Assembly (NCBI RefSeq): GCF_947179165.1
Contig: NC_077238.1
Span: forward strand, 41,283,793 to 41,347,792
DNA from: Solanum dulcamara
Lineage: Eukaryota; Streptophyta; Magnoliopsida; Solanales; Solanaceae
Direction of reading: 5' to 3'
DNA length: 64,000 bases
In this document: piece by piece, positions 17,188-49,240 of the stretch
How positions within the stretch are numbered: the stretch's first letter is position 1
Layout of the letters: every line of letters starts with the position of its first letter
The notes under the pieces: generated by a model
What the model saw: only the letters and a program-made list of their open reading frames with translations
The model's database searches: none
Told to the model about the DNA's origin: nothing
Position numbers and translations under genes: made by a program

Positions 17188-17238
17188 ATTTACATCTTCC
17201 CACTTCTATGTAGGAATTTTGATTTCTTGAGCTAGACC

Positions 17239-18621: not shown

Positions 18622-18925
18622 CTTGGGAATTTCACACTCCCTTACCCTTAATTAATGATAGCCGAAATAAAGGACAATCTTAGAAAAATAGCTTGCTCCT
18701 TGTAATTGATCAAACAATTCATCTATCCTTGGGATTGAACTTATTGAATTGCCAGTAATCTATACACATTTGGAGTGACCCATATTTCTTCCTAACAAAT
18801 AACACGGGAGCACCTCATGGTGTAATACTTAGTCTTATAAAACCCTTATCCATCAAATCCTTCAATTATTCTTTTAACTCCTTAAGTTCTACCGGAGCCA
18901 TATAGTAAGGAGGAATAGAGACAGG

Positions 18926-20671: not shown

Positions 20672-20874
20672 CTTTCTGAAAATCACAAAGAAATACAGTC
20701 AGGGAACAGAAGTCCTAACGTAAACTCTATAGCACGACATGTATCATGAAAGAAGTGAAAATTCCTAAATGCCTCATAGCCCCCTACTCATAAATATGGC
20801 GCACTTCACACCCATGAATAAGACTCTACTTGACGTGGCATGTTGGACACCCTAGGACACTTGAAGAACCATGT

Positions 20875-20886
20875 GCTCTAATACCA
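20875..20886 (-). promoter_or_regulatory. primer binding site of X1 (tRNA-Met type)
   Basis: The minus strand reads TGGTATTAGAGC, one base from the usual TGGTATCAGAGC, about 10 bp from the 5' LTR. Confidence 0.7.
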
Positions 20887-20896
20887 AATTTTATCA

Positions 20897-22897: not shown

Positions 22898-22902
22898 GCT
22901 AC
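22898..22902. other. target-site duplication of X1, right copy
   Basis: GCTAC directly after the LTR end, matching GCTAT at 13862-13866 in four of five bases. The broken gag of X2 resumes here. Confidence 0.6.
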
Positions 22903-23792: not shown

Positions 23793-23890
23793 TTTTTTTA
23801 AAAATCACAACGGACAAATATTAGGGAAAGGAAGTCTTAGAACACACTCTATAGAACGACATAGATCATGAAAGAAGTAGGGATTTCTAA
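23793..23890 (-). other. shortened 5' leader of X2, primer site missing
   Basis: It aligns with the X1 leader (GAACGACATAGATCATGAAAGAAGT versus 20733 onward) up to about 23887, then joins the LTR terminus TGTCACGA at 23891. The ~125 bp that hold the primer site in X1 are absent. Confidence 0.6.
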
Positions 23891-23922
23891 TGTCACGATG
23901 CGACTTAGTGGCTAGATGTAAC
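23891..23922 (-). repeat. LTR shared by X2 and X3, first piece
   Basis: TGTCACGATGCGACTTAGTG aligns base for base with the LTR end at 13867 of X1. The alignment continues without a gap at 46145 (AAAGTGATCGAAACCCC), showing where W split this LTR 32 bp from its end. Confidence 0.75.
23918..23922. other. target-site duplication of W, left copy
   Basis: GTAAC, identical to 46145-46149. It directly abuts the W terminus TGTCATGACC at 23923. Confidence 0.85.
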
Positions 23923-24453
23923 TGTCATGACCTAGCCATGTAGGCTGTGACTGGCGTCCTATCTGAACACCCAGACAAACTAACATACTGATTCATCATA
24001 TTATAGAAGAATTTCGATTGAGTCTTCCTTATTTAATCAGAATAGTAAACAAGTATTATCTTAAGCGGTCATGCGTGTAGAAAATATCATATCCAATAAA
24101 AAGGCGATGGAATATGCATCGCCGAATTGGTGCATATATACATACAAGCATGTGGGCCAATTTGTCCATTATAACATAAAGTACCACATTAAGACACCAA
24201 TAATAAATAGACGAACACACATGACCCATGACCCACACGTATGTCTATAGGTCTCTATAGAGCATAGTGGAAACATATGATGGGAAAGGGCCCCACCATA
24301 CTCGAATTGTCAAATATATACAGATGCATATACATAGGAAAGCCATATACCAAAATGTAGGCTCTGAGTCAAGGAGCACTCTGTAATAGCAGAAGGTGTG
24401 TAACCTACACGGATGGATCACGAACGTCGGTACATGCGGGCATAAAATGCAGT

Positions 24454-24471
24454 CCCCCGGAGAAAGGGGGG
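24454..24471 (-). other. conserved G/C hairpin in W 3' LTR
   Basis: CCCCC, a seven-base spacer, GGGGGG; same place in the LTR as 43791-43808 and 2660-2676. The loop differs, the stem is kept. Confidence 0.6.
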
Positions 24472-25639
24472 TAAGTATGAAATGTGTACTGAATATGTTA
24501 AGTACAAAATATAGAGAATCTCAACCATAACTGAAAGAAAAGGTACAAGAAGAAAATATAAACCAGGGCATCAAAATCTATACGGAAACATATGTACATA
24601 AGGCAAATAAAAATCATGCCTACGACTCAGGAACGTGGTCACCACCCCGACGCTGGTACCACAATACATCATACTCTGAAAGGTTTCAAATCTTTGTACA
24701 AACCCCGAACATATCATATCTTTATAACACGTCGTATCATCAGAACATATTATATGCAATATCATATCATAACGCCATAAACGGTGCCCGGCCTCATGGT
24801 GAGGTTTCGGGATCCATAACACATTATATTGCCAAATACATTATAGGGCGCACGATTACAAAGCCAGCCTGGGTTCCGGCGAATGATGTCACAGTAGTAT
24901 GCAAGAACGGAGTAGTGATAAACTAATGCAACACATATACATATATCAAGCATTTCCGAAGTTATATTTATAATTCCAAAGTGGGTAGTAGAACATAAGG
25001 GGACGATTAAGACATTATTTTTTATAGGAAAAGTCATAGGCAAAAGTTTTCCCTCTATGTTGTACAATAATAAATATGTAGAACAACTTAGGCGATTTTC
25101 AGAGTTAGTAGGCCCACCTCCGGTCGAGCCGAGGTGGCATACATGAATTTCAAACATTTGGCTCTACGGAGTCATCTATCAAGGTTGTAGGATAATCCGA
25201 TCTCACAAGTAAAAGTTACAGATGTTTGCACGTTTCTTTTCAATATACATAGGTTTAAGTTTAATTTCACTAAAAGGATTTGTAGGAAATTTAAACTCGG
25301 ATTTCCATGGACAGGATTTCCCTTGAGGCTCAAATTAAGACTCATTACACCTAAGGCATGCCAGAAGAAGGAAAGGAAGAGCTTTACATACCTTATCCGC
25401 TTCTTACGCTCACTCAAACACAACTCCCATTTTCTCTGAACTCTATAAATGGTCACAATTGCCAATTGTAAGTTATAAGCCTTTAAGTGTTCAATTTCTA
25501 GTCCTTACTAGTCTATAAAAATTTGGGCAGCACCTCCTCTATAAATTCAACATCCCCGAGAATCTAACTCGGCCAAAATATCAACAACAACAATACCGAC
25601 AACATCAACAATCACTATAAAATACATTATAACACTAAT

Positions 25640-25686
25640 AGTCTTTCTTCTTCTTCTTCTTTCTTCTTTCTCTTCTTTCTTTTTAT
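25640..25686 (-). repeat. polypurine (AAG)n-type tract in each unit
   Basis: The + strand is a nearly pure pyrimidine run (CTT repeats, then CTTT and TCTT mixtures); the minus strand is all purine. It is repeated every 1414 bp through the array and once in the other LTR (about 44979-45020). Read as protein it gives the KKKEEKEERRRRRK stretch, which is low complexity rather than a sign of coding. Confidence 0.75.
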
Positions 25687-26292
25687 TACATAAAGCAATA
25701 ATTTCTACTCCAACTTCACACCTTGCCACTAATATCAACATTTCATATTCACTCACTAACTAATTTGAAACCATTTAGACATAACTCAAAAGAAATTAAC
25801 ATTATTCCATACAATATTCCAAAAATTCCACTAAAATCATAATCCATCCAAAACTTCTACGAACACAAGGAAACTACCAAATCGCATTACCTTTTTCCAA
25901 ATTCGTTAAGGATGACAATAATTTCCATAATAAAATTCTACTTCCATAATTCCATATAAACTATACTAAAATTACATAATTCCCTATAACAACTTATAAC
26001 CAATTTTGAGGTTGTCTCGAATCATGAAACTATTAATTATATCGTAACCGCCATAACGACACCACTAACAAGCTAAATAAAGTTCAATTCCTCTTCTCCC
26101 AACCATCACTCGGCACAGCTACACACACCCACTTGCACACCCATATGGTCACACACACATACATCACAATTACATAATTTTCACTTAATTCTACTAACTA
26201 CAACATACCCACTTCTTCCATAACATGAGAAGATAGAATTCTTACCTTATTCTTCAAATTTCGACTTGCCACAATGTAGTTTTCTCGCTTAA

Positions 26293-26493
26293 TTAATTAT
26301 GCCATATTGAAGAGGGCCTCCAACTTGACAAGAATTTAAGAAGATAAGATTTTTGGATCAAAGTTGAAGAACTTGGAATTGTTTCTCTTTTTTTTCTAGT
26401 TGCGGTCTCTTCTTCTCTTGGAAGATGACTTAGCTCTGTTTTTGGAGTCTTGAACTTTGTAGAGACATATATACTAAATAGATGATGGGTCAC
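26293..26493 (-). other. 66-codon LTR ORF with TATA-like start, repeated nine times
   Basis: This small frame lies in the LTR near its sense start and recurs at 27707, 29121, 30535, 31949, 33363, 34777, 36191 and 37605. The minus strand carries AGTATATATGTCTCTAC at its 5' end, a plausible U3 TATA box, so the region is more likely promoter than gene. It has no known domain. In the 5' LTR the corresponding frame is altered. Confidence 0.35.
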
Positions 26494-26811
26494 TTAATTA
26501 ATGAACTAAATTTCCAAGACTTGGGTCATTTCTTGTGTTGGGCCTCAATTCTTCTATTACTATTGTTATTATGAGAGCCCAAACTACTTTATTGTAATTA
26601 TTATTATTTAAGACCAAAAGCTACAAGTCTTCTCTCTTTTTGTAATTCACAAACTAATCTCCAAAATTCCCAATTTTACCCTCGGCCTTCTTTCGTATTT
26701 CCACATCAATTTTTTTTCCATGAACATCACACCAATCTTAAATAAAATAAATCACAACCTCATTCCTTGCAAATCAATTTTTTTGAATGCGCCAAAGTGC
26801 GGGATGTAACA

Positions 26812-26830
26812 TCTTTCCCCCCTATAAAAC
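26812..26830 (-). promoter_or_regulatory. polypurine tract of W (one per unit)
   Basis: The minus strand reads TATAGGGGGGAAAGA directly before the LTR start TGTTACATCC. It recurs once per unit; the copy next to the real internal region is at 38124-38140. Confidence 0.8.
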
Positions 26831-26918
26831 ATTCGTCTCCGAATATTAAATCGGCCTCATAAGTCTCAAGAGTATCCTAGGGAGGATATTCCATACGGAT
26901 GGTATACATAATTAATTA

Positions 26919-27170
26919 CTAATTAATGTAATCAATTACGGAATTTAAGTTACCTGATGGCATAGGAAATAGGTGAGGATATTTCTTCTTCATCTCGCCT
27001 TCAACAATACCGACAACATCAACAATCACTATAAAATACATTATAACACTAATAGTCTTTCTTCTTCTTCTTCTTTCTTCTTTCTCTTCTTTCTTTTTAT
27101 TACATAAAGCAATAATTTCTACTCCAACTTCACACCTTGCCACTAATATCAACATTTCATATTCACTCAC
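26919..27170 (-). other. chimeric 83-codon ORF created by the unit junction (8 copies)
   Basis: The frame starts in the LTR part (MSEYEMLILVARCEVGVEII...), crosses the unit junction and ends with the last codons of W pol (EGEMKKKYPHLFPMPSG...). It exists only because units are joined head to tail, at 26919, 28333, 29747, 31161, 32575, 33989, 35403 and 36817. The outermost copies (25547-25756 and 44883-45092) stay in LTR sequence and end differently. Translation is not implied; it is a sequence marker of the junction. Confidence 0.6.
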
Positions 27171-30100
27171 TAACTAATTTGAAACCATTTAGACATAACT
27201 CAAAAGAAATTAACATTATTCCATACAATATTCCAAAAATTCCACTAAAATCATAATCCATCCAAAACTTCTACGAACACAAGGAAACTACCAAATCGCA
27301 TTACCTTTTTCCAAATTCGTTAAGGATGACAATAATTTCCATAATAAAATTCTACTTCCATAATTCCATATAAACTATACTAAAATTACATAATTCCCTA
27401 TAACAACTTATAACCAATTTTGAGGTTGTCTCGAATCATGAAACTATTAATTATATCGTAACCGCCATAACGACACCACTAACAAGCTAAATAAAGTTCA
27501 ATTCCTCTTCTCCCAACCATCACTCGGCACGGCTACACACACCCACTTGCACACCCATATGGTCACACACACATACATCACAATTACATAATTTTCACTT
27601 AATTCTACTAACTACAACATACCCACTTCTTCCATAACATGAGAAGATAGAATTCTTACCTTATTCTTCAAATTTCGACTTGCCACAATGTAGTTTTCTC
27701 GCTTAATTAATTATGCCATATTGAAGAGGGCCTCGAACTTGACAAGAATTTAAGAAGATAAGATTTTTGGATCAAAGTTGAAGAACTTGGAATTGTTTCT
27801 CTTTTTTTTCTAGTTGCGGTCTCTTCTTCTCTTGGAAGATGACTTAGCTCTGTTTTTGGAGTCTTGAACTTTGTAGAGACATATATACTAAATAGATGAT
27901 GGGTCACTTAATTAATGAACTAAATTTCCAAGACTTGGGTCATTTCTTGTGTTGGGCCTCAATTCTTCTATTACTATTGTTATTATGAGAGCCCAAACTA
28001 CTTTATTGTAATTATTATTATTTAAGACCAAAAGCTACAAGTCTTCTCTCTTTTTGTAATTCACAAACTAATCTCCAAAATTCCCAATTTTACCCTCGGC
28101 CTTCTTTCGTATTTCCACATCAATTTTTTTTCCATGAACATCACACCAATCTTAAATAAAATAAATCACAACCTCATTCCTTGCAAATCAATTTTTTTGA
28201 ATGCGCCAAAGTGCGGGATGTAACATCTTTCCCCCCTATAAAACATTCGTCTCCGAATATTAAATCGGCCTCATAAGTCTCAAGAGTATCCTAGGGAGGA
28301 TATTCCATACGGATGGTATACATAATTAATTACTAATTAATGTAATCAATTACGGAATTTAAGTTACCTGATGGCATAGGAAATAGGTGAGGATATTTCT
28401 TCTTCATCTCGCCTTCAACAATACCGACAACATCAACAATCACTATAAAATACATTATAACACTAATAGTCTTTCTTCTTCTTCTTCTTTCTTCTTTCTC
28501 TTCTTTCTTTTTATTACATAAAGCAATAATTTCTACTCCAACTTCACACCTTGCCACTAATATCAACATTTCATATTCACTCACTAACTAATTTGAAACC
28601 ATTTAGACATAACTCAAAAGAAATTAACATTATTCCATACAATATTCCAAAAATTCCACTAAAATCATAATCCATCCAAAACTTCTACGAACACAAGGAA
28701 ACTACCAAATCGCATTACCTTTTTCCAAATTCGTTAAGGATGACAATAATTTCCATAATAAAATTCTACTTCCATAATTCCATATAAACTATACTAAAAT
28801 TACATAATTCCCTATAACAACTTATAACCAATTTTGAGGTTGTCTCGAATCATGAAACTATTAATTATATCGTAACCGCCATAACGACACCACTAACAAG
28901 CTAAATAAAGTTCAATTCCTCTTCTCCCAACCATCACTCGGCACGGCTACACACACCCACTTGCACACCCATATGGTCACACACACATACATCACAATTA
29001 CATAATTTTCACTTAATTCTACTAACTACAACATACCCACTTCTTCCATAACATGAGAAGATAGAATTCTTACCTTATTCTTCAAATTTCGACTTGCCAC
29101 AATGTAGTTTTCTCGCTTAATTAATTATGCCATATTGAAGAGGGCCTCGAACTTGACAAGAATTTAAGAAGATAAGATTTTTGGATCAAAGTTGAAGAAC
29201 TTGGAATTGTTTCTCTTTTTTTTCTAGTTGCGGTCTCTTCTTCTCTTGGAAGATGACATAGCTCTGTTTTTGGAGTCTTGAACTTTGTAGAGACATATAT
29301 ACTAAATAGATGATGGGTCACTTAATTAATGAACTAAATTTCCAAGACTTGGGTCATTTCTTGTGTTGGGCCTCAATTCTTCTATTACTATTGTTATTAT
29401 GAGAGCCCAAACTACTTTATTGTAATTATTATTATTTAAGACCAAAAGCTACAAGTCTTCTCTCTTTTTGTAATTCACAAACTAATCTCCAAAATTCCCA
29501 ATTTTACCCTCGGCCTTCTTTCGTATTTCCACATCAATTTTTTTTCCATGAACATCACACCAATCTTAAATAAAATAAATCACAACCTCATTCCTTGCAA
29601 ATCAATTTTTTTGAATGCGCCAAAGTGCGGGATGTAACATCTTTCCCCCCTATAAAACATTCGTCTCCGAATATTAAATCGGCCTCATAAGTCTCAAGAG
29701 TATCCTAGGGAGGATATTCCATACGGATGGTATACATAATTAATTACTAATTAATGTAATCAATTACGGAATTTAAGTTACCTGATGGCATAGGAAATAG
29801 GTGAGGATATTTCTTCTTCATCTCGCCTTCAACAATACCGACAACATCAACAATCACTATAAAATACATTATAACACTAATAGTCTTTCTTCTTCTTCTT
29901 CTTTCTTCTTTCTCTTCTTTCTTTTTATTACATAAAGCAATAATTTCTACTCCAACTTCACACCTTGCCACTAATATCAACATTTCATATTCACTCACTA
30001 ACTAATTTGAAACCATTTAGACATAACTCAAAAGAAATTAACATTATTCCATACAATATTCCAAAAATTCCACTAAAATCATAATCCATCCAAAACTTCT

Positions 30101-33100
30101 ACGAACACAAGGAAACTACCAAATCGCATTACCTTTTTCCAAATTCGTTAAGGATGACAATAATTTCCATAATAAAATTCTACTTCCATAATTCCATATA
30201 AACTATACTAAAATTACATAATTCCCTATAACAACTTATAACCAATTTTGAGGTTGTCTCGAATCATGAAACTATTAATTATATCGTAACCGCCATAACG
30301 ACACCACTAACAAGCTAAATAAAGTTCAATTCCTCTTCTCCCAACCATCACTCGGCACGGCTACACACACCCACTTGCACACCCATATGTTCACACACAC
30401 ATACATCACAATTACATAATTTTCACTTAATTCTACTAACTACAACATACCCACTTCTTCCTTAACATGAGAAGATAGAATTCTTACCTTATTCTTCAAA
30501 TTTCGACTTGCCACAATGTAGTTTTCTCGCTTAATTAATTATGCCATATTGAAGAGGGCCTCGAACTTGACAAGAATTTAAGAAGATAAGATTTTTGGAT
30601 CAAAGTTGAAGAACTTGGAATTGTTTCTCTTTTTTTTCTAGTTGCGGTCTCTTCTTCTCTTGGAAGATGACTTAGCTCTGTTTTTGGAGTCTTGAACTTT
30701 GTAGAGACATATATACTAAATAGATGATGGGTCACTTAATTAATGAACTAAATTTCCAAGACTTGGGTCATTTCTTGTGTTGGGCATCAATTCTTCTATT
30801 ACTATTGTTATTATGAGAGCCCAAACTACTTTATTGTAATTATTATTATTTAAGACCAAAAGCTACAAGTCTTCTCTCTTTTTGTAATTCACAAACTAAT
30901 CTCCAAAATTCCCAATTTTACCCTCGGCCTTCTTTCGTATTTCCACATCAATTTTTTTTCCATGAACATCACACCAATCTTAAATAAAATAAATCACAAC
31001 CTCATTCCTTGCAAATCAATTTTTTTGAATGCGCCAAAGTGCGGGATGTAACATCTTTCCCCCCTATAAAACATTCGTCTCCGAATATTAAATCGGCCTC
31101 ATAAGTCTCAAGAGTATCCTAGGGAGGATATTCCATACGGATGGTATACATAATTAATTACTAATTAATGTAATCAATTACGGAATTTAAGTTACCTGAT
31201 GGCATAGGAAATAGGTGAGGATATTTCTTCTTCATCTCGCCTTCAACAATACCGACAACATCAACAATCACTATAAAATACATTATAACACTAATAGTCT
31301 TTCTTCTTCTTCTTCTTTCTTCTTTCTCTTCTTTCTTTTTATTACATAAAGCAATAATTTCTACTCCAACTTCACACCTTGCCACTAATATCAACATTTC
31401 ATATTCACTCACTAACTAATTTGAAACCATTTAGACATAACTCAAAAGAAATTAACATTATTCCATACAATATTCCAAAAATTCCACTAAAATCATAATC
31501 CATCCAAAACTTCTACGAACACAAGGAAACTACCAAATCGCATTACCTTTTTCCAAATTCGTTAAGGATGACAATAATTTCCATAATAAAATTCTACTTC
31601 CATAATTCCATATAAACTATACTAAAATTACATAATTCCCTATAACAACTTATAACCAATTTTGAGGTTGTCTCGAATCATGAAACTATTAATTATATCG
31701 TAACCGCCATAACGACACCACTAACAAGCTAAATAAAGTTCAATTCCTCTTCTCCCAACCATCACTCGGCACGGCTACACACACCCACTTGCACACCCAT
31801 ATGGTCACACACACATACATCACAATTACATAATTTTCACTTAATTCTACTAACTACAACATACCCACTTCTTCCATAACATGAGAAGATAGAATTCTTA
31901 CCTTATTCTTCAAATTTTGACTTGCCACAATGTAGTTTTCTCGCTTAATTAATTATGCCATATTGAAGAGGGCCTCGAACTTGACAAGAATTTAAGAAGA
32001 TAAGATTTTTGGATCAAAGTTGAAGAACTTGGAATTGTTTCTCTTTTTTTTCTAGTTGCGGTCTCTTCTTCTCTTGGAAGATGACTTAGCTCTGTTTTTG
32101 GAGTCTTGAACTTTGTAGAGACATATATACTAAATAGATGATGGGTCACTTAATTAATGAACTAAATTTCCAAGACTTGGGTCATTTCTTGTGTTGGGCC
32201 TCAATTCTTCTATTACTATTGTTATTATGAGAGCCCAAACTACTTTATTGTAATTATTATTATTTAAGACCAAAAGCTACAAGTCTTCTCTCTTTTTGTA
32301 ATTCACAAACTAATCTCCAAAATTCCCAATTTTACCCTCGGCCTTCTTTCGTATTTCCACATCAATTTTTTTTCCATGAACATCACACCAATCTTAAATA
32401 AAATAAATCACAACCTCATTCCTTGCAAATCAATTTTTTTGAATGCGCCAAAGTGCGGGATGTAACATCTTTCCCCCCTATAAAACATTCGTCTCCGAAT
32501 ATTAAATCGGCCTCATAAGTCTCAAGAGTATCCTAGGGAGGATATTCCATACGGATGGTATACATAATTAATTACTAATTAATGTAATCAATTACGGAAT
32601 TTAAGTTACCTGATGGCATAGGAAATAGGTGAGGATATTTCTTCTTCATCTCGCCTTCAACAATACCGACAACATCAACAATCACTATAAAATACATTAT
32701 AACACTAATAGTCTTTCTTCTTCTTCTTCTTTCTTCTTTCTCTTCTTTCTTTTTATTACATAAAGCAATAATTTCTACTCCAACTTCACACCTTGCCACT
32801 AATATCAACATTTCATATTCACTCACTAACTAATTTGAAACCATTTAGACATAACTCAAAAGAAATTAACATTATTCCATACAATATTCCAAAAATTCCA
32901 CTAAAATCATAATCCATCCAAAACTTCTACGAACACAAGGAAACTACCAAATCGCATTACCTTTTTCCAAATTCGTTAAGGATGACAATAATTTCCATAA
33001 TAAAATTCTACTTCCATAATTCCATATAAACTATACTAAAATTACATAATTCCCTATAACAACTTATAACCAATTTTGAGGTTGTCTCGAATCATGAAAC

Positions 33101-36100
33101 TATTAATTATATCGTAACCGCCATAACGACACCACTAACAAGCTAAATAAAGTTCAATTCCTCTTCTCCCAACCATCACTCGGCACGGCTACACACACCC
33201 ACTTGCACACCCATATGTTCACACACACATACATCACAATTACATAATTTTCACTTAATTCTACTAACTACAACATACCCACTTCTTCCATAACATGAGA
33301 AGATAGAATTCTTACCTTATTCTTCAAATTTCGACTTGCCACAATGTAGTTTTCTCGCTTAATTAATTATGCCATATTGAAGAGGGCCTCGAACTTGACA
33401 AGAATTTAAGAAGATAAGATTTTTGGATCAAAGTTGAAGAACTTGGAATTGTTTCTCTTTTTTTTCTAGTTGCGGTCTCTTCTTCTCTTGGAAGATGACT
33501 TAGCTCTGTTTTTGGAGTCTTGAACTTTGTAGAGACATATATACTAAATAGATGATGGGTCACTTAATTAATGAACTAAATTTCCAAGACTTGGGTCATT
33601 TCTTGTGTTGGGCCTCAATTCTTCTATTACTATTGTTATTATGAGAGCCCAAACTACTTTATTGTAATTATTATTATTTAAGACCAAAAGCTACAAGTCT
33701 TCTCTCTTTTTGTAATTCACAAACTAATCTCCAAAATTCCCAATTTTACCCTCGGCCTTCTTTCGTATTTCCACATCAATTTTTTTTTCATGAACATCAC
33801 ACCAATCTTAAATAAAATAAATCACAACCTCATTCCTTGCAAATCAATTTTTTTGAATGCGCCAAAGTGCGGGATGTAACATCTTTCCCCCCTATAAAAC
33901 ATTCGTCTCCGAATATTAAATCGGCCTCATAAGTCTCAAGAGTATCCTAGGGAGGATATTCCATACGGATGGTATACATAATTAATTACTAATTAATGTA
34001 ATCAATTACGGAATTTAAGTTACCTGATGGCATAGGAAATAGGTGAGGATATTTCTTCTTCATCTCGCCTTCAACAATACCGACAACATCAACAATCACT
34101 ATAAAATACATTATAACACTAATAGTCTTTCTTCTTCTTCTTCTTTCTTCTTTCTCTTCTTTCTTTTTATTACATAAAGCAATAATTTCTACTCCAACTT
34201 CACACCTTGCCACTAATATCAACATTTCATATTCACTCACTAACTAATTTGAAACCATTTAGACATAACTCAAAAGAAATTAACATTATTCCATACAATA
34301 TTCCAAAAATTCCACTAAAATCATAATCCATCCAAAACTTCTACGAACACAAGGAAACTACCAAATCGCATTACCTTTTTCCAAATTCGTTAAGGATGAC
34401 AATAATTTCCATAATAAAATTCTACTTCCATAATTCCATATAAACTATACTAAAATTACATAATTCCCTATAACAACTTATAACCAATTTTGAGGTTGTC
34501 TCGAATCATGAAACTATTAATTATATCGTAACCGCCATAACGACACCACTAACAAGCTAAATAAAGTTCAATTCCTCTTCTCCCAACCATCACTCGGCAC
34601 GGCTACACACACCCACTTGCACACCCATATGTTCACACACACATACATCACAATTACATAATTTTCACTTAATTCTACTAACTACAACATACCCACTTCT
34701 TCCATAACATGAGAAGATAGAATTCTTACCTTATTCTTCAAATTTCGACTTGCCACAATGTAGTTTTCTCGCTTAATTAATTATGCCATATTGAAGAGGG
34801 CCTCGAACTTGACAAGAATTTAAGAAGATAAGATTTTTGGATCAAAGTTGAAGAACTTGGAATTGTTTCTCTTTTTTTTCTAGTTGCGGTCTCTTCTTCT
34901 CTTGGAAGATGACTTAGCTCTGTTTTTGGAGTCTTGAACTTTGTAGAGACATATATACTAAATAGATGATGGGTCACTTAATTAATGAACTAAATTTCCA
35001 AGACTTGGGTCATTTCTTGTGTTGGGCCTCAATTCTTCTATTACTATTGTTATTATGAGAGCCCAAACTACTTTATTGTAATTATTATTATTTAAGACCA
35101 AAAGCTACAAGTCTTCTCTCTTTTTGTAATTCACAAACTAATCTCCAAAATTCCCAATTTTACCCTCGGCCTTCTTTCGTATTTCCACATCAATTTTTTT
35201 TTCATGAACATCACACCAATCTTAAATAAAATAAATCACAACCTCATTCCTTGCAAATCAATTTTTTTGAATGCGCCAAAGTGCGGGATGTAACATCTTT
35301 CCCCCCTATAAAACATTCGTCTCCGAATATTAAATCGGCCTCATAAGTCTCAAGAGTATCCTAGGGAGGATATTCCATACGGATGGTATACATAATTAAT
35401 TACTAATTAATGTAATCAATTACGGAATTTAAGTTACCTGATGGCATAGGAAATAGGTGAGGATATTTCTTCTTCATCTCGCCTTCAACAATACCGACAA
35501 CATCAACAATCACTATAAAATACATTATAACACTAATAGTCTTTCTTCTTCTTCTTCTTTCTTCTTTCTCTTCTTTCTTTTTATTACATAAAGCAATAAT
35601 TTCTACTCCAACTTCACACCTTGCCACTAATATCAACATTTCATATTCACTCACTAACTAATTTGAAACCATTTAGACATAACTCAAAAGAAATTAACAT
35701 TATTCCATACAATATTCCAAAAATTCCACTAAAATCATAATCCATCCAAAACTTCTACGAACACAAGGAAACTACCAAATCGCATTACCTTTTTCCAAAT
35801 TCGTTAAGGATGACAATAATTTCCATAATAAAATTCTACTTCCATAATTCCATATAAACTATACTAAAATTACATAATTCCCTATAACAACTTATAACCA
35901 ATTTTGAGGTTGTCTCGAATCATGAAACTATTAATTATATCGTAACCGCCATAACGACACCACTAACAAGCTAAATAAAGTTCAATTCCTCTTCTCCCAA
36001 CCATCACTCGGCACGGCTACACACACCCACTTGCACACCCATATGGTCACACACACATACATCACAATTACATAATTTTCACTTAATTCTACTAACTACA

Positions 36101-38259
36101 ACATACCCACTTCTTCCATAACATGAGAAGATAGAATTCTTACCTTATTCTTCAAATTTCGACTTGCCACAATGTAGTTTTCTCGCTTAATTAATTATGC
36201 CATATTGAAGAGGGCCTCGAACTTGACAAGAATTTAAGAAGATAAGATTTTTGGATCAAAGTTGAAGAACTTGGAATTGTTTCTCTTTTTTTTCTAGTTG
36301 CGGTCTCTTCTTCTCTTGGAAGATGACTTAGCTCTGTTTTTGGAGTCTTGAACTTTGTAGAGACATATATACTAAATAGATGATGGGTCACTTAATTAAT
36401 GAACTAAATTTCCAAGACTTGGGTCATTTCTTGTGTTGGGCCTCAATTCTTCTATTACTATTGTTATTATGAGAGCCCAAACTACTTTATTGTAATTATT
36501 ATTATTTAAGACCAAAAGCTACAAGTCTTCTCTCTTTTTGTAATTCACAAACTAATCTCCAAAATTCCCAATTTTACCCTCGGCCTTCTTTCGTATTTCC
36601 ACATCAATTATTTTTCCATGAACATCACACCAATCTTAAATAAAATAAATCACAACCTCATTCCTTGCAAATCAATTTTTTTGAATACGCCAAAGTGCGG
36701 GATGTAACATCTTTCCCCCCTATAAAACATTCGTCTCCGAATATTAAATCGGCCTAATAAGTCTCAAGAGTATCCTAGGGAGGATATTCCATACGGATGG
36801 TATACATAATTAATTACTAATTAATGTAATCAATTACGGAATTTAAGTTACCTGATGGCATAGGAAATAGGTGAGGATATTTCTTCTTCATCTCGCCTTC
36901 AACAATACCGACAACATCAACAATCACTATAAAATACATTATAACACTAATAGTCTTTCTTCTTCTTCTTCTTTCTTCTTTCTCTTCTTTCTTTTTATTA
37001 CATAAAGCAATAATTTCTACTCCAACTTCACACCTTGCCACTAATATCAACATTTCATATTCACTCACTAACTAATTTGAAACCATTTAGACATAACTCA
37101 AAAGAAATTAACATTATTCCATACAGTATTCCAAAAATTCCACTAAAATCATAATCCATCCAAAACTTCTACGAACACAAGGAAACTACCAAATCGCATT
37201 ACCTTTTTCCAAATTCGTTAAGGATGACAATAATTTCCATAATAAAATTCTACTTCCATAATTCCATATAAACTATACTAAAATTACATAATTCCCTATA
37301 ACAACTTATAACCAATTTTGAGGTTGTCTCGAATCATGAAACTATTAATTATATCGTAACCGCCATAACGACACCACTAACAAGCTAAATAAAGTTCAAT
37401 TCCTCTTCTCCCAACCATCACTCGGCACGGCTACACACACCCACTTGCACACCCATATGGTCACACACACATACATCACAATTACATAATTTTCACTTAA
37501 TTCTACTAACTACAACATACCCACTTCTTCCATAACATGAGAAGATAGAATTCTTACCTTATTCTTCAAATTTCGACTTGCCACAATGTAGTTTTCTCGC
37601 TTAATTAATTATGCCATATTGAAGAGGGCCTCGAACTTGACAAGAATTTAAGAAGATAAGATTTTTGGATCAAAGTTGAAGAACTTGGAATTGTTTCTCT
37701 TTTTTTTCTAGTTGCGGTCTCTTCTTCTCTTGGAAGATGACTTAGCTCTGTTTTTGGAGTCTTGAACTTTGTAGAGACATATATACTAAATAGATGATGG
37801 GTCACTTAATTAATGAACTAAATTTCCAAGACTTGGGTCATTTCTTGTGTTGGGCATCAATTCTTCTATTACTATTGTTATTATGAGAGCCCAAACTACT
37901 TTATTGTAATTATTATTATTTAAGACCAAAAGCTACAAGTCTTCTCTCTTTTTGTAATTCACAAACTAATCTCCAAAATTCCCAATTTTACCCTCGGCCT
38001 TCTTTCGTATTTCCACATCAATTTTTTTTCCATGAACATCACACCAATCTTAAATAAAATAAATCACAACCTCATTCCTTGCAAATCAATTTTTTTGAAT
38101 GCGCCAAAGTGCGGGATGTAACATCTTTCCCCCCTATAAAACATTCGTCTCCGAATATTAAATCGGCCTCATAAGTCTCAAGAGTATCCTAGGGAGGATA
38201 TTCCATACGGATGGTATACATAATTAATTACTAATTAATGTAATCAATTACGGAATTTA

Positions 38260-38999
38260 AGTTACCTGATGGCATAGGAAATAGGTGAGGATATTTCTTC
38301 TTCATCTCGCCTTCTGCCTCCCAGGTTATTTCTTCTTGGTTATTGTTCTGCCACGAAACCTTGACAAAAGGTACATCTTTGGTGCATAATCTTCTCACCA
38401 GCTGATCTAAAATGGCTACGATCTATTCTTCGTAAGATAGCTCATCCGTTATCTGCACTTCTTCTATAGGGAATATTCTGGAGGGATCCCCAATACATTT
38501 ACGAAGCATAGACACATGAAATACCAGGTGCACTGCCTCCAGATCGAAGGGTAAGTCTAGATCATAGGCGACTTCGCCTATCCTCCAGGCAATGTGATAA
38601 GGTCCGATATACCGCGGGCTAAGATTACCCTTTTTGCCAAACCTCATCACCCTTTTTATAGGCGACACCTTCAGAAATACCCAGTCGCCAATCTAAAACT
38701 CTAGTGGTCGACATCGCTTATCTGCATATGATTTCTGTCGACTTTGAGTAGCCAATAACCGCTAGAATAAGCTTTACTTCGACTGTTTTTTGTACCATAT
38801 CTGGCCCAATTAATTTAGTCTCACCCACATCGAACCAACCAATTGAGGATCTGCACTTCCTACCATACAAGGCTTCATATGGTGCCATTTGAATGCTGGA
38901 ATGGTAGCTATTATTGTAAGCAAATTCAATAAGTGGAAAATGGTTGTCCCAGCTACCTTTGAAATCAATTACATAGACCTGCAATATATCTTTCAGCAT
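38260..38999 (-). pseudogene. W pol C-terminus: integrase tail and chromodomain-like region
   Basis: Readable pieces: 38999-38718 (integrase end: YVIDFKGSWDNHFPLIEFAY, NNSYHSSIQMAPYEALYGRK), 38668-38423 (MSPIKRVMRFGKKGNLSPRY, LEAVHLVFHVSMLRKCIGDP), then the tail through 38314 into the repeated part (AILDQLVRRL, FVKVSWQNN, ITWEAEGEMKKKYPHLF). The final residues continue into array unit 9, which proves which unit is the original internal end. Frame changes occur near 38720, and there are stops between the pieces. Confidence 0.82.
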
Positions 39000-39530
39000 T
39001 TGAATAGTGCGCTCGGCCTATCCATCGGATTGAGGATGAAACACAGTGCTAAGACTCACCTGAGTCCCTAATCCTTCTTGGAATGACCTCTAGAAGTTAG
39101 CCATAAACTGGGCACCTCTTGTTGTTATAATGGATACAGGAACTCCATGAGCCTTACTATCTTTTTAATATACAATCTAACATAATCCTCAACCGAATAC
39201 GTAGTTTTGACAGGAAGAAAATAGGCTGATTTTATTAGTCTATCAATAATAACCAAATAGAATCATACTTGCGTGGAGTGCGCGGTAATCCTGTAATGAA
39301 ATCCATATTAATTCTTTCCTATTTCCAAGTAGGAACTTCTATTTTTTGTAATAATCCAGCGGGTTTTTGATGCTCGATCTTAACTTGCTGATAATTTGGA
39401 CACTGACCAATAAACTCTGCAATGTCTCTTTTCATCCTGTCCCACAATATAAATATTTGATGTCATAATATATTTTAGTGGATCAGAATGAATAGAATAC
39501 TGACCAATATGTGGTTCGCCCATAATTTGC
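39000..39530 (-). pseudogene. W integrase core and zinc finger, badly broken
   Basis: No long open frame, but the landmarks can be read. The first catalytic Asp (IIDRL) is preceded by a one-base loss. The ISDRG motif reads ITTRG, so the second Asp is gone. The codon before the AERTIQ glutamate block is a stop (CAG to TAG type). Integrase from this copy would be inactive. Confidence 0.7.
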
Positions 39531-39532
39531 TG

Positions 39533-40039
39533 TCACAGCCCTGTAACGTCGGGCACACATATCCTGTCTTCACATAAAAATACCCCATCTGATAAAATTT
39601 TGAACTGAGTCCTTTCCTTGTTAAGAGCCATATCCCTGTACTGCAGCAAATTGGGATCCTCGAACTGACGCCGTTTTACCTCTTCCATAAGTGATGATTC
39701 AGCAATATTTCGGACAGAAATCCCGGTATCTCCAGAGTCGGCCAAATGAACTCTAAGACTGGCTAACTGATGAATCTCACGAACCAATTCTTTCTTATCT
39801 GGTGGCACCTGAGTCAAATTACCCATTTACTTGCAGCTAAGTGCATCAGCTACCACATTGGCTTTCCCCGGATGATACAAAATATCGACATCATAATCTT
39901 TCAATAATTCCAACAATCTTCGCTGCCATAAATTTAGCTCTTTTTGCTTAAAAATATACTGGAGGCTCTTGTGGCACATATAAATATCAATGTGGACCCC
40001 ATACAAGTAATGCCACCATATCTTTAAGGCATGAATCAT
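39533..40039 (-). pseudogene. W RNase H end and linker to integrase
   Basis: 40039-39827 carries [21 protein letters not shown] and [15 protein letters not shown]; the usual TDHKSL has become MCHKSL, so one catalytic Asp is lost. 39826-39533 is the linker typical of Gypsy pol (MGNLTQVPPDKKELVREIHQ, LLQYRDMAL, FKILSDGVFLCEDRICVPD), in the same frame. Confidence 0.8.
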
Positions 40040-40090
40040 CGTGGCTAATTCTAGATCATGAGTGGGATAATTTCTTTTATACGGTCTGAG

Positions 40091-40477
40091 CTATCGGGAA
40101 GCATAAACTATGAGTCGACAATGCTGCATTAACACACAACCTATCCTAATACCAGAAGTATCACAATAAATGACATACCCATCTGACCTCTTTGGAAGGG
40201 CTAAAACTAGAGCTGTAATTAATTTTTCCTTCAGCAACCAAAAGTTGCTTTCACAAGCGTCAGTCCAATGAAATTTGGCTGCCTTCTGAGTTAGCTTTGT
40301 TAAGGATACCACAATAGAAGCAAAATTCTCTACAAATCTTCTGTAATACCTGGCTAACCCCAGAAATCTACGCACCTCTGTCGGTGTGGTAGGCCTGGGC
40401 AAATTCTGTACAACCTCTATCCTCTGTGTATCGACCTGAATGTCACCTGCTCCGACAATATGCCCCAGAAATGCCAC
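40091..40477 (-). pseudogene. W RT connection and RNase H start
   Basis: 128 codons: MAFLGHIVGAGDIQVDTQRI, FLGLARYYRRFVENFASI, LTKLTQKAAKFHWTDACE, then the RNase H start with YCDTS. Same frame as 40825-40577, separated by a stop region. It matches X1 at 18360-17980. Confidence 0.82.
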
Positions 40478-40576
40478 AGAGGTTAACTAGAATTCACATT
40501 TAGAGAATTTAGCATATAATTTTTGTTGCTGAAGTATGCCGAGTACTGTCCTCACATGATCGGAATGCTCTTCTGC

Positions 40577-41100
40577 TTATTGTGAGTAAATCAAAAGGTC
40601 ATCAATAAATACAATCACGAACATGTCAAGGTATGGCCGAAATACCTGATTCATCAAATCCATAAACATAGCTAGGGCATTAGTCAGCACAAAAGACATC
40701 ACCTTGAATTCATAATGTCTGTACCGGGTCCTAAAAGCAGTTTTTGGAATATCTGCCTCCCGTACCCGTACCTGATAGTAGCCCAAGCGTAAATCGATCT
40801 TTAAAAAATATTTGGAACCCTGCAACTAATCAAATAAATGGTCAATCCGAGGGAGGGGATATTTATTCTTTATAGTCACCTTATTTAATTGTTTGTAGTC
40901 AATACATATCCGCAATGACCCATCTTTCTTCCTTACAAATAATACCGGTGCTCCCTAGGGCGATGTGTTAGGCCTAATAAAGCCTTTGTCTAATAAGTCT
41001 TTCAGTTGCTCCTTCAATTCTTTTAATTTCGCTGGCGCCATTCTATACGGAGGGATAGATAAAGGTTGAGTATCCATCAGCAAATCTATCAGGAACTCTA
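40577..41100 (-). pseudogene. W reverse transcriptase core
   Basis: 40825-40577 holds [34 protein letters not shown] and [10 protein letters not shown], so the catalytic Asp pair is intact. Conserved first-domain sequence ([14 protein letters not shown] and KKDGS-type blocks) can be followed to about 41040 through stops. The Gly of the SFGLTNAP motif is Val here. Confidence 0.82.
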
Positions 41101-41690
41101 CCTCCCGTTCAGGGGAAAACCTGGAAGCTCATCTGGAAATACATCTGGAATTTATTAACTACCGAAACTGACGGGAGAACGGGTGTCTCGGCTTTAGTAT
41201 CATGTACATGAATTAAATGATAAATATAGCCTTTTTGAATCATCTTTTTAGCCTTGAGGTATGAAATAAACTTACCCCTCAGCGATGCTGTACTCCCTAT
41301 CCACTTCATTACTGGTTCCCCTGGAAACTGAAATCGAACTACCTTTTCCGGTAGTTAACATTAGCATAATAGGAAGCTAACCAGTCCATACCCTAATAAT
41401 ATCAAATTCTATCATATCTAATTCCACCAAGTCAGCTTTAGTGCAACGATCACATATAATCACCAAACAATCCTTATATACCTGCCTCGCTATAATAAAA
41501 TCCCCAACTGGTGTAGCTACTTCAAATGGCTCTATAGGTTCAGGAGGTATCCCGATTTTTCCAGCAACGAGCAGAGAGATATATGATAAAGTAGATCCTG
41601 GATCAATCAATGCATATATAGATCGAGAGAAAACTAATAGTGTACCTGTGATAACATTTGGTGATGCCTCCTGGTCCTAGTGGCTAGCCA
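41101..41690 (-). pseudogene. W aspartic protease region
   Basis: 41610-41377 reads MIDPGSTLSYISLLVAGKIG, where DSG-type is usual (Ser to Pro), followed by DLVELDMIEFDII. 41309-41109 (MKWIGSTASLRGKFISYLKA) is the linker toward RT, in another frame. The protease is probably inactive. Confidence 0.78.
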
Positions 41691-43053
41691 ATGCATATAT
41701 GTGGTTCGAAGGACTACTAGAATCAGAAACTCTACCACGGCCTCGACCGCGGCCAGCCGATGCTGGCACACCTCATCCCATAAGACGTGCAGTTGGTGGG
41801 GTAGACAATAAACTAACAGCTAATCCTATCGGCTGAACTATGCCACTGGATCCACTCGCCAAAGGACAATCTCGCATGATATGGCCTTGACGGCCGTAAG
41901 AAAAACAAGCTCATGTAGCTTGGTAACACTCTCTAGGATGTGATCTCCCACAATAAGAACACCAGGGTATAGGGGGCCTGGACTGGCCTGCACCTCTGCT
42001 CGTCTGCGGACCTAATGCTCTAGAACTCTGGCCGGCCCCAGACGGCCCTACGCCACCAAATCGTCTGCGTACTCCGTCCTAATGGAGAAAGATACCTACT
42101 GGACTGTTGCTGAAGATGCCTGCCTCAGAAATCTCAAGAATATCCTGCTAATCTAGACCTCTTAGGCAGCCTCCTATCACGATCTTTGCCTGAAGGATCT
42201 CCCCTGTGTCGTTCCTCCATACCCTGCACGTAGGCCTGTAGTTAGCCAATATCCATACCAACCTAAGATGCCATCGCCATAGAGTTGTCAACCAAATAAT
42301 AATCCAACCCTATCATGTATCGATGCATGTTGTCATATATATCAACTACAATAGTAGGTGCATATCGAACCAAAGAATCAAACTCCAAGCTATACTCTCG
42401 AACACTCATGCCTCGCTGCCTCAACTGTAAAAATCTATCAAATCTCGCGCGCTGCAACTCTGGAGACAAAAAGTGGCTGAGGAAGGCAGCTACGAACTCA
42501 TCCCACACATCTAGGGAAGCACCCTCACCTCTAGACAGCTCCCAATACTCGTACCAATTAACCGCAACATGCCGCAACCTGTGTGAAGCTAACTCAACAA
42601 ACTCGGTCTTAGAAGCCCTGACTAGTCTCAATGAGCGCTGTATCTGTCAAATAAAATCTTGGGGGTCTTTCTCGGGCTTAGACCCAAAAAATTCTAAAGG
42701 ATTACATGTCAGGAAATCACGGACCCTCAAGCTATCATACCCATCATCATAATCACCTCTTTGCCCATGTCTGCGGGTCTAACCCGCTACTATCATCATT
42801 AGCAGCTGCATAACCTCCCTAAGCACCTTACCCTCTGCCCCAGGCTGAGGAGCTGGAGGGTCGAGTGCTGGATCCTCTGGAGCTAATGGGGGAGCTGCTC
42901 CAGGATCCTCCGATGGTAGTGTAGCAGAACCCTCCGACTGGGGCATAACATCGGGATACTCTGAGCACAAGCTCGGGTAACTCTCATCATCTGACTAGTC
43001 TCTCCAACTACCGCTTTGCCCTTCTGTGCCGTCATCTCCTTCTTCGAAGGCAT
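41691..43053 (-). pseudogene. W gag
   Basis: The likely start is the ATG at 43053 (MPSKKEMTAQKGKAVV). A Pro/Ala-rich segment follows (42970-42779), then the capsid-like part (42631-42263: VWDEFVAAFLSHFLSPELQR, LQLRQRGMSVREYSLEFDSL). A degraded double zinc knuckle lies near 41960-41880: CSYCGRSHPREC, a stop, then a second knuckle in which a Cys is Tyr. Its sequence is clearly different from gag of X1, X2 and Y, so W belongs to a different family. Confidence 0.8.
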
Positions 43054-43241
43054 CACTGAAAAAAACACAATAGCCGATCAGGAAAAAATCAGCCTAATAG
43101 CACAACTTTATCGCCACGATCTAAGATTCAAAGGAAGGTAACACCATAAATGTCCTATAGCCTCCTATTTATAGATGTGGTGCACAACACACCGATAAAA
43201 AAGACTCTACGAGACACGACCGATAGACATTCCGAGGATAA

Positions 43242-43258
43242 ACTGCTTTGATACTACT
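43242..43258 (-). promoter_or_regulatory. primer binding site of W (tRNA-Met type)
   Basis: The minus strand reads AGTAGTATCAAAGCAG just inside the 5' LTR end at 43261. It resembles TGGTATCAAAGC with one change. Confidence 0.7.
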
Positions 43259-43260
43259 TT

Positions 43261-46144
43261 TGTCATGACCCAGCCCCGTAGGTCGCGACTAGCGTCCTAT
43301 CTGAACACCACATAAACTTACATACTGATTTTTCATATTATAAAAGAATTTCGATTGAGTCTGCTTTATTTAATCAGAATTGTAAACAAGTATTATCTTA
43401 AGTGGTCGCGCGTGTAGAAAATATCATATTCAACAAAAGGGCGACGGAATGCACATCGTCGGATAGGTGCATATATACATACAAGTATGTGGACTGATTT
43501 TTCCATTATAACGTAAGGGACCGCATTAAGACACCAGTCATAAACAGATGAACACACACGACTCATGACCCATACGTATGTTTATAGGTCTCTATAGACC
43601 ATAGCAGAAACATATGATAGGACAGGGCCCCACCATACCCGAATGGTCAAATATATACAGATGCATATACATAGGGAAGCCATATACCAAAATGCGGGCT
43701 CCGAGTCAAGGAGCACTCTATAATAGCAGAAGGTGTGTAACCTACATGGATGGATCACGAACGTCGGTACCTGTGGGCATGAAATGCAGTCCCCCCGCAG
43801 AAGGGGGGTTAGTACAAAATATGTACTAAATATATAAAGTATAAAATATAGAGAATCTCAACCTTAACCGAAAGGAAAGGTAAAGATGCAAATACAAACC
43901 AGGGCATCAAAATCTGTACGGAAACGTATGTACATAATGCAAATAAAAATCATGCCTACGGCTCAGGAACGTGGTCACCACCCCAACGCTGGTACCACAA
44001 CACATCATACTTTGGAAGGTTTCAAATCTCCATACAAACCCCGAACATATCATATCTTCACAACACGTCGTATCATCAGAACATATCATATGCAATATCA
44101 TATCATAACACCATAAATGGTGCCCGGCCTCATGGTGGGGTCTTGGGATCCATAACACATCATACTGCTGAATATATTATAAGGCATACGATTACAAAGT
44201 CGGCCCGAGCTCCGGTGAACGATGTCACAGTAGTATGCACGAACAGAGTAGTGAGAAACTAATGCAGCATATATACATATATCAAGCATTTCCAAAGTTA
44301 TATTTACAATTTCAAAGTGGGTAGTAGAACATAAGGGATGGTTAAGACATTATTTTTTTATAGGAAAAATCATAGGCAAAAGTTTTCCCTCTATGTTGTA
44401 AAATAATAACTAAGTAGAACAATTTAGGTGAATTTTAGAGTTAGTGGGCCCACCTTCGGCCGAGCCGAGGTGGCATACATGAATTTCAAATATTTGGCTC
44501 TACGGAGTCATCTATCAAGGTTGTAGGATGATCCGATCTCACAAGTAAAAGTTATGGATGTTTGCACGTTTCTTTTCAATATACATAGGTTTAAGTTTAA
44601 TTTTACTAAAAGGATTTGTAGGAAATTTAAACTCGGATTTCCATGGATAGGATTTCCCTTGAAGCTCAAATTAAGACTTATTACACCTAAGGCATGCCAA
44701 AAGAAGGAAAGGAAGAGCTTTACATACCTTATCCGCTTCTTAGGCTCACTCAAACTCAACTACCGTTTTCTCCGAACTCTACAAATGGTCACAATTGCCA
44801 ATTGAAAGTTATAAGCCTTTAAGAGTTCAATTTCTAGTCCTTACTAGTCTATAAAAATTTGGGCAGCACCTCCTCTATAAATTCAACATCCCCGAGAATC
44901 TAACTCGGCCAAAATATCAACAACAACAATACCGACAACATCAACAATCACTATAAAATACATTATAACACTAATAGTCTTTCTTCTTCTTCTTCTTTCT
45001 TCTTTCTCTTCTTTCTTTTTATTACATAAAGCAATAATTTCTACTCCAACTTCACACCTTGCCACTAATATCAATATTTCATATTCACTCACTAACTAAT
45101 TTGAAACCATTTAGACATAACTCAAAAGAAATTAACATTATTCCATACAATATACCAAAAATTCCACTAAAACCATAATTCATCCAAAACTTCTACGAAC
45201 ACAAGGAAACTACCAAATGGCATTACCTTCTTCCAAATTCATTAAGGATGACAATAATTTCCATAATAGAATTCTACTTCCATAATTACGTATAAACTAT
45301 ACTAAATTCACATAATTCCCTATAACAACTTATAACCAATTTTGAGGTTCTCTAGAATCATGAAACTATTAATTACACCGTAACCGCCATAACAACACCA
45401 CTAACAAGCTAAATAAAGTTTAATTCCTCTTCTCCCAACCATCACCCCACACGGCAACACACACCCACTTGCACCCCATATGGTCACACACGCATACATC
45501 ACAATTATATGGTTTTTACTTAATTCTACTAACTACAACACACCCACTTCTTCCATAATATGAGAAGATGGAATTCTTACCTTATTCTTCAAATTTTAAC
45601 TTGCCACAAACGTAGTTTTCTCACTTAATTAATTATGCCACATTGAAGAGGGCCTCAAACTTGACAAGAATTCAAGAAGGCAAGATTTTTGGATCAAATT
45701 TGAAGAACTTAGAATTTTTCCTCTCTTTTTTTAGTTTCTGTCTCTTCTTCTCTTGAAGATGACTTAGCTCTCTTTTTGGACTCTTGAACTTTGTAGATAC
45801 ATATATACTAAATAGATGATGGGCCACTTAATTAATGAACTAAATTTCCAAGACTTGGGCCATTTCTTCTGTTGGGCCTCAATTCTTCTATTACTATTGT
45901 TATTATGAGAGCCCAAACTACTTTATTGTAATTATTATTATTTAAGCCCAAAAGCTACAAGTTTTCTCTCTTTTTATAATTCACAAACTAATCTCCAAAA
46001 TTCTCAATTTTACCCTCGGCCTTCTTTCGTATTTCCACATTAATATTTTTCCATAAACATCACACCAATCTTAAATAAAATAAATGACAAACTCATTCCT
46101 TGCAAACTAATTTTTTTGAATGCGCCAAAGTGTGGGATGTAATA
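43261..46144 (-). repeat. 5' LTR of W
   Basis: 2884 bp, single copy with no tandem units, so it shows the state before amplification. The inner end is TGTCATGACC. The outer end reads GGATGTAATA on the + strand, so the sense start is TATTACATCC; the usual TG has mutated to TA. The region equivalent to the array unit is 44924-46144. Confidence 0.88.
43791..43808 (-). other. conserved G/C hairpin in W 5' LTR
   Basis: CCCCCC, a six-base loop, GGGGGG. Partner of 24454-24471 and 2660-2676. Confidence 0.6.
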
Positions 46145-46149
46145 GTAAC
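46145..46149. other. target-site duplication of W, right copy
   Basis: GTAAC, identical to 23918-23922. Confidence 0.85.
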
Positions 46150-49238: not shown

Positions 49239-49240
49239 AA

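What the first reader, a model, noticed from the sequence alone, without database searches (positions are those of the whole stretch)
25588..38313. A young satellite array growing inside its parent retrotransposon
Nine head-to-tail 1414-bp units, exactly 12,726 bp, each joining 1224 bp of LTR start to 190 bp of the pol end and polypurine tract of the same element W. The parent, both junctions and the unamplified LTR (43261-46144) are all present. Established background: plant satellites derived from LTR or UTR parts of Gypsy elements are known, for example the Solanum Sobo repeat and PisTR-A from Ogre. Seeing the array still in place inside a target-duplication-flanked element is the unusual part.
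Basis: partly seen in the sequence, partly recalled or inferred. Interest (0 to 1): 0.88.

Follow-up and report, generated by a model that had tools for sequence, protein, structure and literature searches.

The report
Young tandem array inside dead retrotransposon
A 1.4-kb piece at the end of one old, inactive plant retrotransposon was recently copied head-to-tail into nine units without leaving its place, a clear snapshot of how a satellite-like repeat can begin, though the general process was already known.

Summary
Bases 25588-38313 hold nine 1414-bp units, no indels, 12 variable columns. Each joins 1224 bp of LTR start to 190 bp of pol end, 3' UTR and polypurine tract of one minus-strand Ty3/gypsy element, W (23923-46144), flanked by a 5-bp duplication, GTAAC. 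In an LTR tree the units form one clade, sister to W's 5' LTR. W's two LTRs share a 9-bp deletion that 18 of 19 other LTRs lack; the 19th has a longer one. The unit-unit junction, with up to 3 mismatches, occurs 8 times in the 942-Mb genome, all here. No second copy was seen in the stretches fetched from 43 related element ends.

Most likely one tandem duplication with 1-bp microhomology arose late in W's life and grew by unequal exchange. Units differ by about 4% of the divergence between W's LTRs. Copy number rests on the assembly alone. Retrotransposon-derived tandem repeats (CRM1TR/CRM4TR) and arrays expanding inside elements (Lathyrus Ogre) are published, so this is a clean new member of a known kind. 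"Satellite" and "growing" overstate nine units at one locus.

The parts
23918..23922 (.). target-site duplication, GTAAC, left copy
   Evidence: sequence read directly
23923..26811 (-). 3' LTR of element W, 2889 bp; its 1224-bp start (25588-26811) is the LTR part of unit 1
   Evidence: begins TGTTACATCCCG and ends TAGGTCATGACA on the minus strand; pairs with 43261-46144
25588..38313 (-). tandem array, nine 1414-bp units, no indels, 12 variable columns
25588..27001 (-). unit 1 (leftmost): 25588-26811 LTR start, 26812-27001 pol end + 3' UTR + polypurine tract
26812..26826 (-). polypurine tract TATAGGGGGGAAAGA directly before the LTR's TG; present in all nine units
   Evidence: sequence read directly
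25588..25588 (.). left breakpoint, at a CAA tract of variable length inside the LTR; W's two LTRs share a 9-bp deletion here
36900..38313 (-). unit 9 (rightmost), running on into the rest of pol
38314..38314 (.). right breakpoint (38313|38314); continuous in the 10 of 10 relatives given to the call
38231..38422 (-). end of pol with a weak chromodomain match; the right breakpoint cuts this frame
   Evidence: Pfam Chromo E 0.0012, 19.1 bits, under its cut-off of 25.1
38314..43260 (-). internal region of W: gag, protease, RT, RNase H and SH3_Tf2-1 stretches in Ty3/gypsy order, broken by stops
   Evidence: 110 stops in the one frame reported; 7 of 10 open pieces, searched apart, match Pfam; 3 do not
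43261..46144 (-). 5' LTR of W, 2884 bp, not amplified; K2P to the 3' LTR 0.081
46145..46149 (.). target-site duplication, GTAAC, right copy

Best explanation
W is a broken Ty3/gypsy element (chromodomain-type by a weak match) that inserted once. Long after insertion, a 1414-bp stretch across the boundary between its internal region and its 3' LTR was duplicated in tandem. The join connects a point 83 bp before the end of the pol frame to a CAA tract in the LTR, with 1 bp of microhomology, as in end joining or replication template switching. The duplication then supplied 1.4 kb of homology, and unequal exchange between sister chromatids or homologues raised it to nine units and mixed unit variants. 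Shown here: unit structure, breakpoints, origin from W's own 3' end, single locus, youth relative to W. Inferred: the repair pathway, unequal exchange as the growth route, and that growth came late rather than by recent homogenisation of an older array.
For: Units and junctions exact. Both breakpoints are continuous in relatives: the pol side in L001-L006 and in 10 of 10 loci given, the LTR side (apart from the 9 bp W lacks). No second copy was seen in the stretches fetched from 43 related element ends; 38 of 43 show the full single-copy order. Unit clade 100/100, sister to W's 5' LTR 89/96; W's two full LTRs pair 98/98. W's LTRs share a 9-bp deletion; 18 of 19 other LTRs have these bases and one has a different, longer deletion. 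Ten changes are fixed in all nine units but not in W's 5' LTR and are rare (at most 10%) in 17 relative rows, so they predate the units' common ancestor. Mean unit difference 0.0025 in the LTR part against K2P 0.057 between W's LTRs in the same stretch. Junction found 8 times genome-wide, all here; backward control 0. Columns 561 and 957 show all four combinations among units; units 6 and 7 are identical.
Against: Copy number depends on an assembly I could not check against reads. Recent homogenisation of an older array could mimic youth. Unit variants are 5 transitions to 7 transversions against 227:111 in the same stretch of eight LTR pairs (p = 0.12), so some variants may be sequence error. 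The four-gamete conflict rests on one pair of columns. Changes since insertion are uneven: 10 fixed in the array lineage, 27 in the 5' LTR, 27 sites ambiguous; I have no tested reason for this. In the distal LTR part alone the two W LTRs are not grouped as sisters, and in the array part the 3' LTR is slightly nearer to some other copies (C10s2 0.0509) than to W's 5' LTR (0.0549) by raw distance.
Confidence: 0.82

Rival explanations
1. Assembly expansion: the true locus has one to a few units and the assembler added copies.
For: Units 6 and 7 are identical and units differ by 0-6 bases; no reads could be examined. The low transition share of variants (5 of 12) is what random errors would give.
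Against: There are eight distinct haplotypes among nine units, and two variants (columns 561, 957) are shared between non-adjacent units. Unless the junction itself is an assembly error, at least two units exist. The window has no N.
Confidence: 0.1
2. The duplication was made during reverse transcription, before insertion, and came in with W; the array was homogenised later. The 5' LTR would still be single because plus-strand DNA starts at the last polypurine tract.
For: Each unit keeps a polypurine tract directly before the LTR start, so such an RNA could in principle be copied with normal ends (inference).
Against: All units share changes that W's 5' LTR lacks (10 strictly polarised; clade support 100/100), so the present units descend from one copy well after insertion. 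No second copy was seen at 43 related element ends. Edge units 1 and 9 are less diverged than inner units 4 and 8.
Confidence: 0.06
3. Rolling-circle route: a 1414-bp extrachromosomal circle from W was amplified and put back by recombination at the same place. (It shares the first join with the best explanation and differs in the growth step.)
For: Gives near-identical head-to-tail units in one step; named as a possible route for CRM-derived repeats (PMC3648361, discussion read).
Against: Nothing here requires it; reinsertion exactly in phase at the source and nowhere else (8 of 8 junctions here) is less simple than local exchange.
Confidence: 0.08
4. Imported satellite: the unit was a satellite elsewhere that was captured by W.
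For: Retroelements can capture satellite pieces (examples discussed in PMC3648361).
Against: The junction is nowhere else in this genome within 3 mismatches over 29 bp; both halves of the unit are ordinary parts of the family's 3' end at other loci; the units are sister to W's own 5' LTR.
Confidence: 0.01

Closest known systems
CRM1TR and CRM4TR of maize (PMC3648361; abstract, one results section and the discussion read)
   Same: Tandem repeats made wholly of a Ty3/gypsy element's LTR plus adjoining sequence; homogenised locally; few loci.
   Different: CRM1TR: 187 full-length monomers at two pericentromeric loci, average 696 and 819 nt; the authors propose internal deletions giving LTR-UTR~LTR first. 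Here the internal region is still present, the unit crosses the polypurine-tract side of the 3' LTR, and a plain duplication explains it.
Ogre-derived satellites of Lathyrus sativus (PMC7004042; abstract, one results section and the discussion read)
   Same: Tandem arrays sitting inside LTR retrotransposons, downstream of gag-pol, that sometimes expand.
   Different: There short tandem arrays in the 3' UTR are common in the elements; here no relative inspected has one (0 of 43) and the unit takes in 1224 bp of LTR.
Sobo of Solanum bulbocastanum and LTR-derived potato satellites (seen only in a review table and another paper's discussion; the Sobo paper and the potato centromere paper are not held)
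   Same: Solanum satellites related to LTRs of retrotransposons.
   Different: Sobo: 4.7-kb monomer, about 360 kb (as cited); the passages seen do not describe a parent element enclosing the array.
Rodent RPCS satellite (named in the PMC3648361 discussion)
   Same: Unit with a polypurine tract and U3 sequence of an LTR.
   Different: 348-bp monomer of retroviral type; an established satellite.
Cassandra LTR-internal tandem arrays (PMC7215508, passages read)
   Same: Head-to-tail arrays built from an LTR element.
   Different: Units are LTR plus internal domain; here the unit holds 42% of the LTR (1224 of 2889 bp) and 190 bp of the internal region.

Membership tests
Ty3/gypsy LTR retrotransposon (element W) | two LTRs with TG...CA ends and a 5-bp target duplication | tested here: met
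   the 5' LTR now begins TA instead of TG
Ty3/gypsy LTR retrotransposon (element W) | gag, protease, RT, RNase H, integrase in that order | tested here: met
   gag, RVP_2, RVT_1, RNase H and SH3_Tf2-1 matches in that order on open pieces; 3 of 10 pieces, two of them where the integrase core is expected, gave no Pfam match
chromovirus / Tekay-type Ty3/gypsy | chromodomain at the end of integrase | tested here: inconclusive
   Chromo E 0.0012, under Pfam's cut-off; the lineage name Tekay is recalled, not tested
retrotransposon-derived tandem repeat (CRM1TR kind) | unit made only of LTR plus adjoining sequence of one element | tested here: met
retrotransposon-derived tandem repeat (CRM1TR kind) | initiation through deletion giving LTR-UTR~LTR (the authors' proposal) | tested here: not met
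   internal region still present and continuous with unit 9. This is a proposed route, not a defining trait of the kind.
retrotransposon-derived tandem repeat (CRM1TR kind) | centromeric or pericentromeric place | not tested
   locus lies at 41.3 of 84.3 Mb of its contig; gene-density search unanswered
Ogre 3'-UTR tandem repeat expansion | short tandem array present as a regular part of the family | tested here: not met
   0 of 43 related element ends
satellite DNA | long arrays or many loci | tested here: not met
   nine units, 12.7 kb; junction at one locus only
LTR-internal-LTR tandem arrays (Cassandra type) | unit is a whole LTR plus a whole internal domain | tested here: not met
   unit has 1224 of 2889 LTR bases and 190 internal bases

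The most novel reading that the evidence does not exclude
Because every unit ends in a polypurine tract directly followed by the LTR start, an element with such an array could be transcribed and reverse-transcribed with normal ends, carrying the array along. PPT-LTR duplications would then be a class of retrotransposon-derived repeats that can both expand locally and travel, seeding the same satellite at new loci. W itself is broken, and no travelled copy was found in this genome, so this concerns other elements.
Probability: 0.04. Interest if true: 0.7.

Novelty: new member of a known kind. Interest (0 to 1): 0.42.

Why it matters
Retrotransposon-derived satellites are often recognised only after they have grown large and away from a readable parent, so the first step must be guessed. 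Here parent, target site, both breakpoints, the unamplified sister LTR and single-copy relatives are all readable, so the first join (1-bp microhomology, no prior deletion needed) and the relative age of the expansion can be measured. It is a counter-example to the need for an internal deletion or a ready-made short tandem repeat before an LTR-derived array can start. It also gives a test locus for copy-number change between accessions.

Tried and rejected
Chance repeat: rejected, 99.6-100% identity between neighbours over 12.7 kb. Imported or dispersed satellite: rejected for this genome, within 3 mismatches over a 29-bp junction. Family-wide tandem in the 3' end: not seen, 0 of 43. Five of these 43 (L058, L060, L063, L065, L076) lacked part or all of the expected order within the fetched stretch; I count them as 'no second copy seen', not as intact single copies. 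L076 has two weak direct repeats of its own (79 bp at 78%, 255 bp at 66%) that match none of the three probes. 32 of the 43 stretches are only about 1.8 kb long, 11 are longer (3.5-6.2 kb), so a tandem with a longer period could be missed. One search had 11,541 first-look candidates and listed 40 (one is W itself), so only the closest 39 were inspected, plus 4. Low divergence in the array's LTR part as a sign of conversion with the 5' LTR: rejected, since all 8 LTR pairs compared, W included, have a slower LTR start than distal part. Dating in years: with the often-used 1.3e-8 per site per year (recalled, not from a call) W would be about 3 My and the units about 0.1 My; I rely on the ratio instead. 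One search, the DNA search with the unit, did not list the window's own array, so it cannot show absence of arrays; one search is the valid test. In one search the more distant C10x LTR pair was left out of the 17 relative rows. Paper searches answered. I saw their listings, the sections named under Closest known systems, and passages of PMC9659126, PMC7215508 and PMC4620154. PisTR-A beyond the table passage, Tekay and the primer-site idea are recalled.

Full report
What is there. The window lies in a 942-Mb, 32-contig genome at C2:41283793-41347792. The host is probably one of the Solanaceae: the genome has 41 proteinase-inhibitor-II domain matches; the best solved relatives of two of these genes are the wound-induced inhibitor II 1oyv and the inhibitor 1fyb. 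That assignment is inference and rests on recall of where this family occurs. Bases 25588-38313 hold nine units of 1414 bp; neighbours are 99.6-100% identical and the same offset drops to 27-29% outside. There are no indels and 12 variable columns.

The parent. Element W is on the minus strand: 5' LTR 43261-46144, internal region (array included) to 26812, 3' LTR 26811-23923. GTAAC flanks both sides. The polypurine tract directly precedes the 3' LTR. Of ten open pieces of the internal region, seven match gag, protease, RT, RNase H, SH3_Tf2-1 and, weakly, chromodomain profiles in Ty3/gypsy order, and three match nothing. The one frame reported has 110 stops, so W is dead. When 250 bp of each flank are joined, 22 bp of the left flank and 100 bp of the right align as one stretch (79%) to a neighbouring element at 20902-21024, consistent with a simple insertion.

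The unit and the breakpoints. In element orientation each unit is the last 190 bp before the 3' LTR (83 bp of pol end with its stop, a short UTR, the polypurine tract) and then the first 1224 bp of the LTR. The left breakpoint is ATCAACAA|CAACAATACC, the right one CTCGCCTT|CTGCC, and the unit join CTCGCCTT|CAACAATACC: only one base, C, is shared. The left breakpoint lies at a CAA tract whose length varies in the family; W's two LTRs lack 9 bp that 18 of 19 other LTRs have, and the remaining one (C10s) has a different, longer deletion. The pol side is continuous in the 10 of 10 relatives given; the LTR side is continuous in relatives too, apart from those 9 bp.

Origin and uniqueness. In the tree of LTR starts the nine units form a clade (100/100) next to W's 5' LTR (89/96); with full LTRs the two W LTRs pair at 98/98, while the distal part alone does not resolve them. 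By raw distance in the array part some other copies are as near to the 3' LTR as the 5' LTR is, so the tree and the shared deletion carry this point. The junction pattern (29 bp, up to 3 mismatches) occurs 8 times in the genome, all in this array; its backward control occurs 0 times. I inspected all 39 other places listed, plus 4, in stretches of 1.8 to 6.2 kb. In 38 of 43 the order distal LTR, LTR start, pol end is present once; in 5 of 43 part or all of it is missing from the stretch; in 0 of 43 is there a second copy.

Relative age. In the shared LTR stretch W's two LTRs differ by K2P 0.057 (whole LTR 0.081). Units differ on average by 0.0025 in the same stretch and at most by 6 of 1414 bases. 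The ratio is about 4%. Ten changes are fixed in all units yet not in the 5' LTR and at most rare in 17 relative rows; 27 are found only in the 5' LTR; 27 sites are ambiguous. The unevenness is unexplained. Edge units 1 and 9 are less diverged than inner units 4 and 8, though above the mean, which speaks against an old, slowly homogenised array, as an inference.

Turnover. Units 6 and 7 are identical; variant 561T is in units 4, 6, 7 and 957A in units 4 and 9. The two columns show all four combinations, which suggests exchange between units after the mutations arose. It is a single pair of columns. Variants are 5 transitions to 7 transversions against 227:111 in the same stretch of eight LTR pairs, p = 0.12, so a share of sequence errors cannot be excluded.

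Mechanism. Tandem duplication by end joining or template switching at a CAA tract, followed by unequal exchange, explains these features with the fewest steps. The first step is read from the junctions; the pathway names are inference. The maize model of prior internal deletions (PMC3648361) is not needed here, because the internal region is still in place.

Against what is known. LTR-plus-adjoining-sequence tandem repeats (CRM1TR, CRM4TR) and arrays expanding inside LTR retrotransposons are published; a review table lists LTR-derived Solanum satellites including Sobo. In the paper searches I did not see a report of a unit crossing the polypurine-tract/LTR boundary caught in its parent with target duplication, but these cover open papers only and I saw mostly listings. 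I rate it a new member of a known kind: unusually clean, not surprising.

Noticed in passing
window 13866-22870 and 46844-56674: Two further LTR-element-like structures: direct repeats 13866-15876/20891-22870 (87%) and 46844-49321/54189-56674 (86%).
   Followed up: no
window 22900-23878 and 46160-46838: W's flanks resemble parts of the neighbouring element's internal end (75%) and LTR (71-74%), so W seems nested inside a related element.
   Followed up: partly
window 3723-8281 and 59332-63885: Inverted pair of related 4.6-kb stretches, 78.6% identical.
   Followed up: no
G000:C7:46454173-46455381 and C7:46462240-46463447, both minus strand: Two W-related pol ends 8.07 kb apart in the same orientation, about one LTR plus one internal region; possibly head-to-tail elements sharing an LTR. 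Similar pairs 17-18 kb apart on C11 (864275, 881972) and C23 (14479890, 14497089).
   Followed up: no
eight W-family LTR pairs (window; L011, L013, L017, L018, L027-L033, L036-L038): In all 8 pairs compared the distal LTR part is 1.4 to 7.5 times more diverged (K2P) than the LTR start, mostly by transitions; perhaps methylation-linked deamination.
   Followed up: partly
LTR position about 1224 (window 25588): CAA tract with different deletions in the family: 9 bp in W, 15 bp in C10s (L009).
   Followed up: partly
window 2333-2471: 53-bp tandem repeat, 2.6 copies, 91% matches.
   Followed up: no
window 25588-38313 (search tool): The whole-genome DNA search with the unit did not return the array itself, so that mode can miss arrays.
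   Followed up: yes
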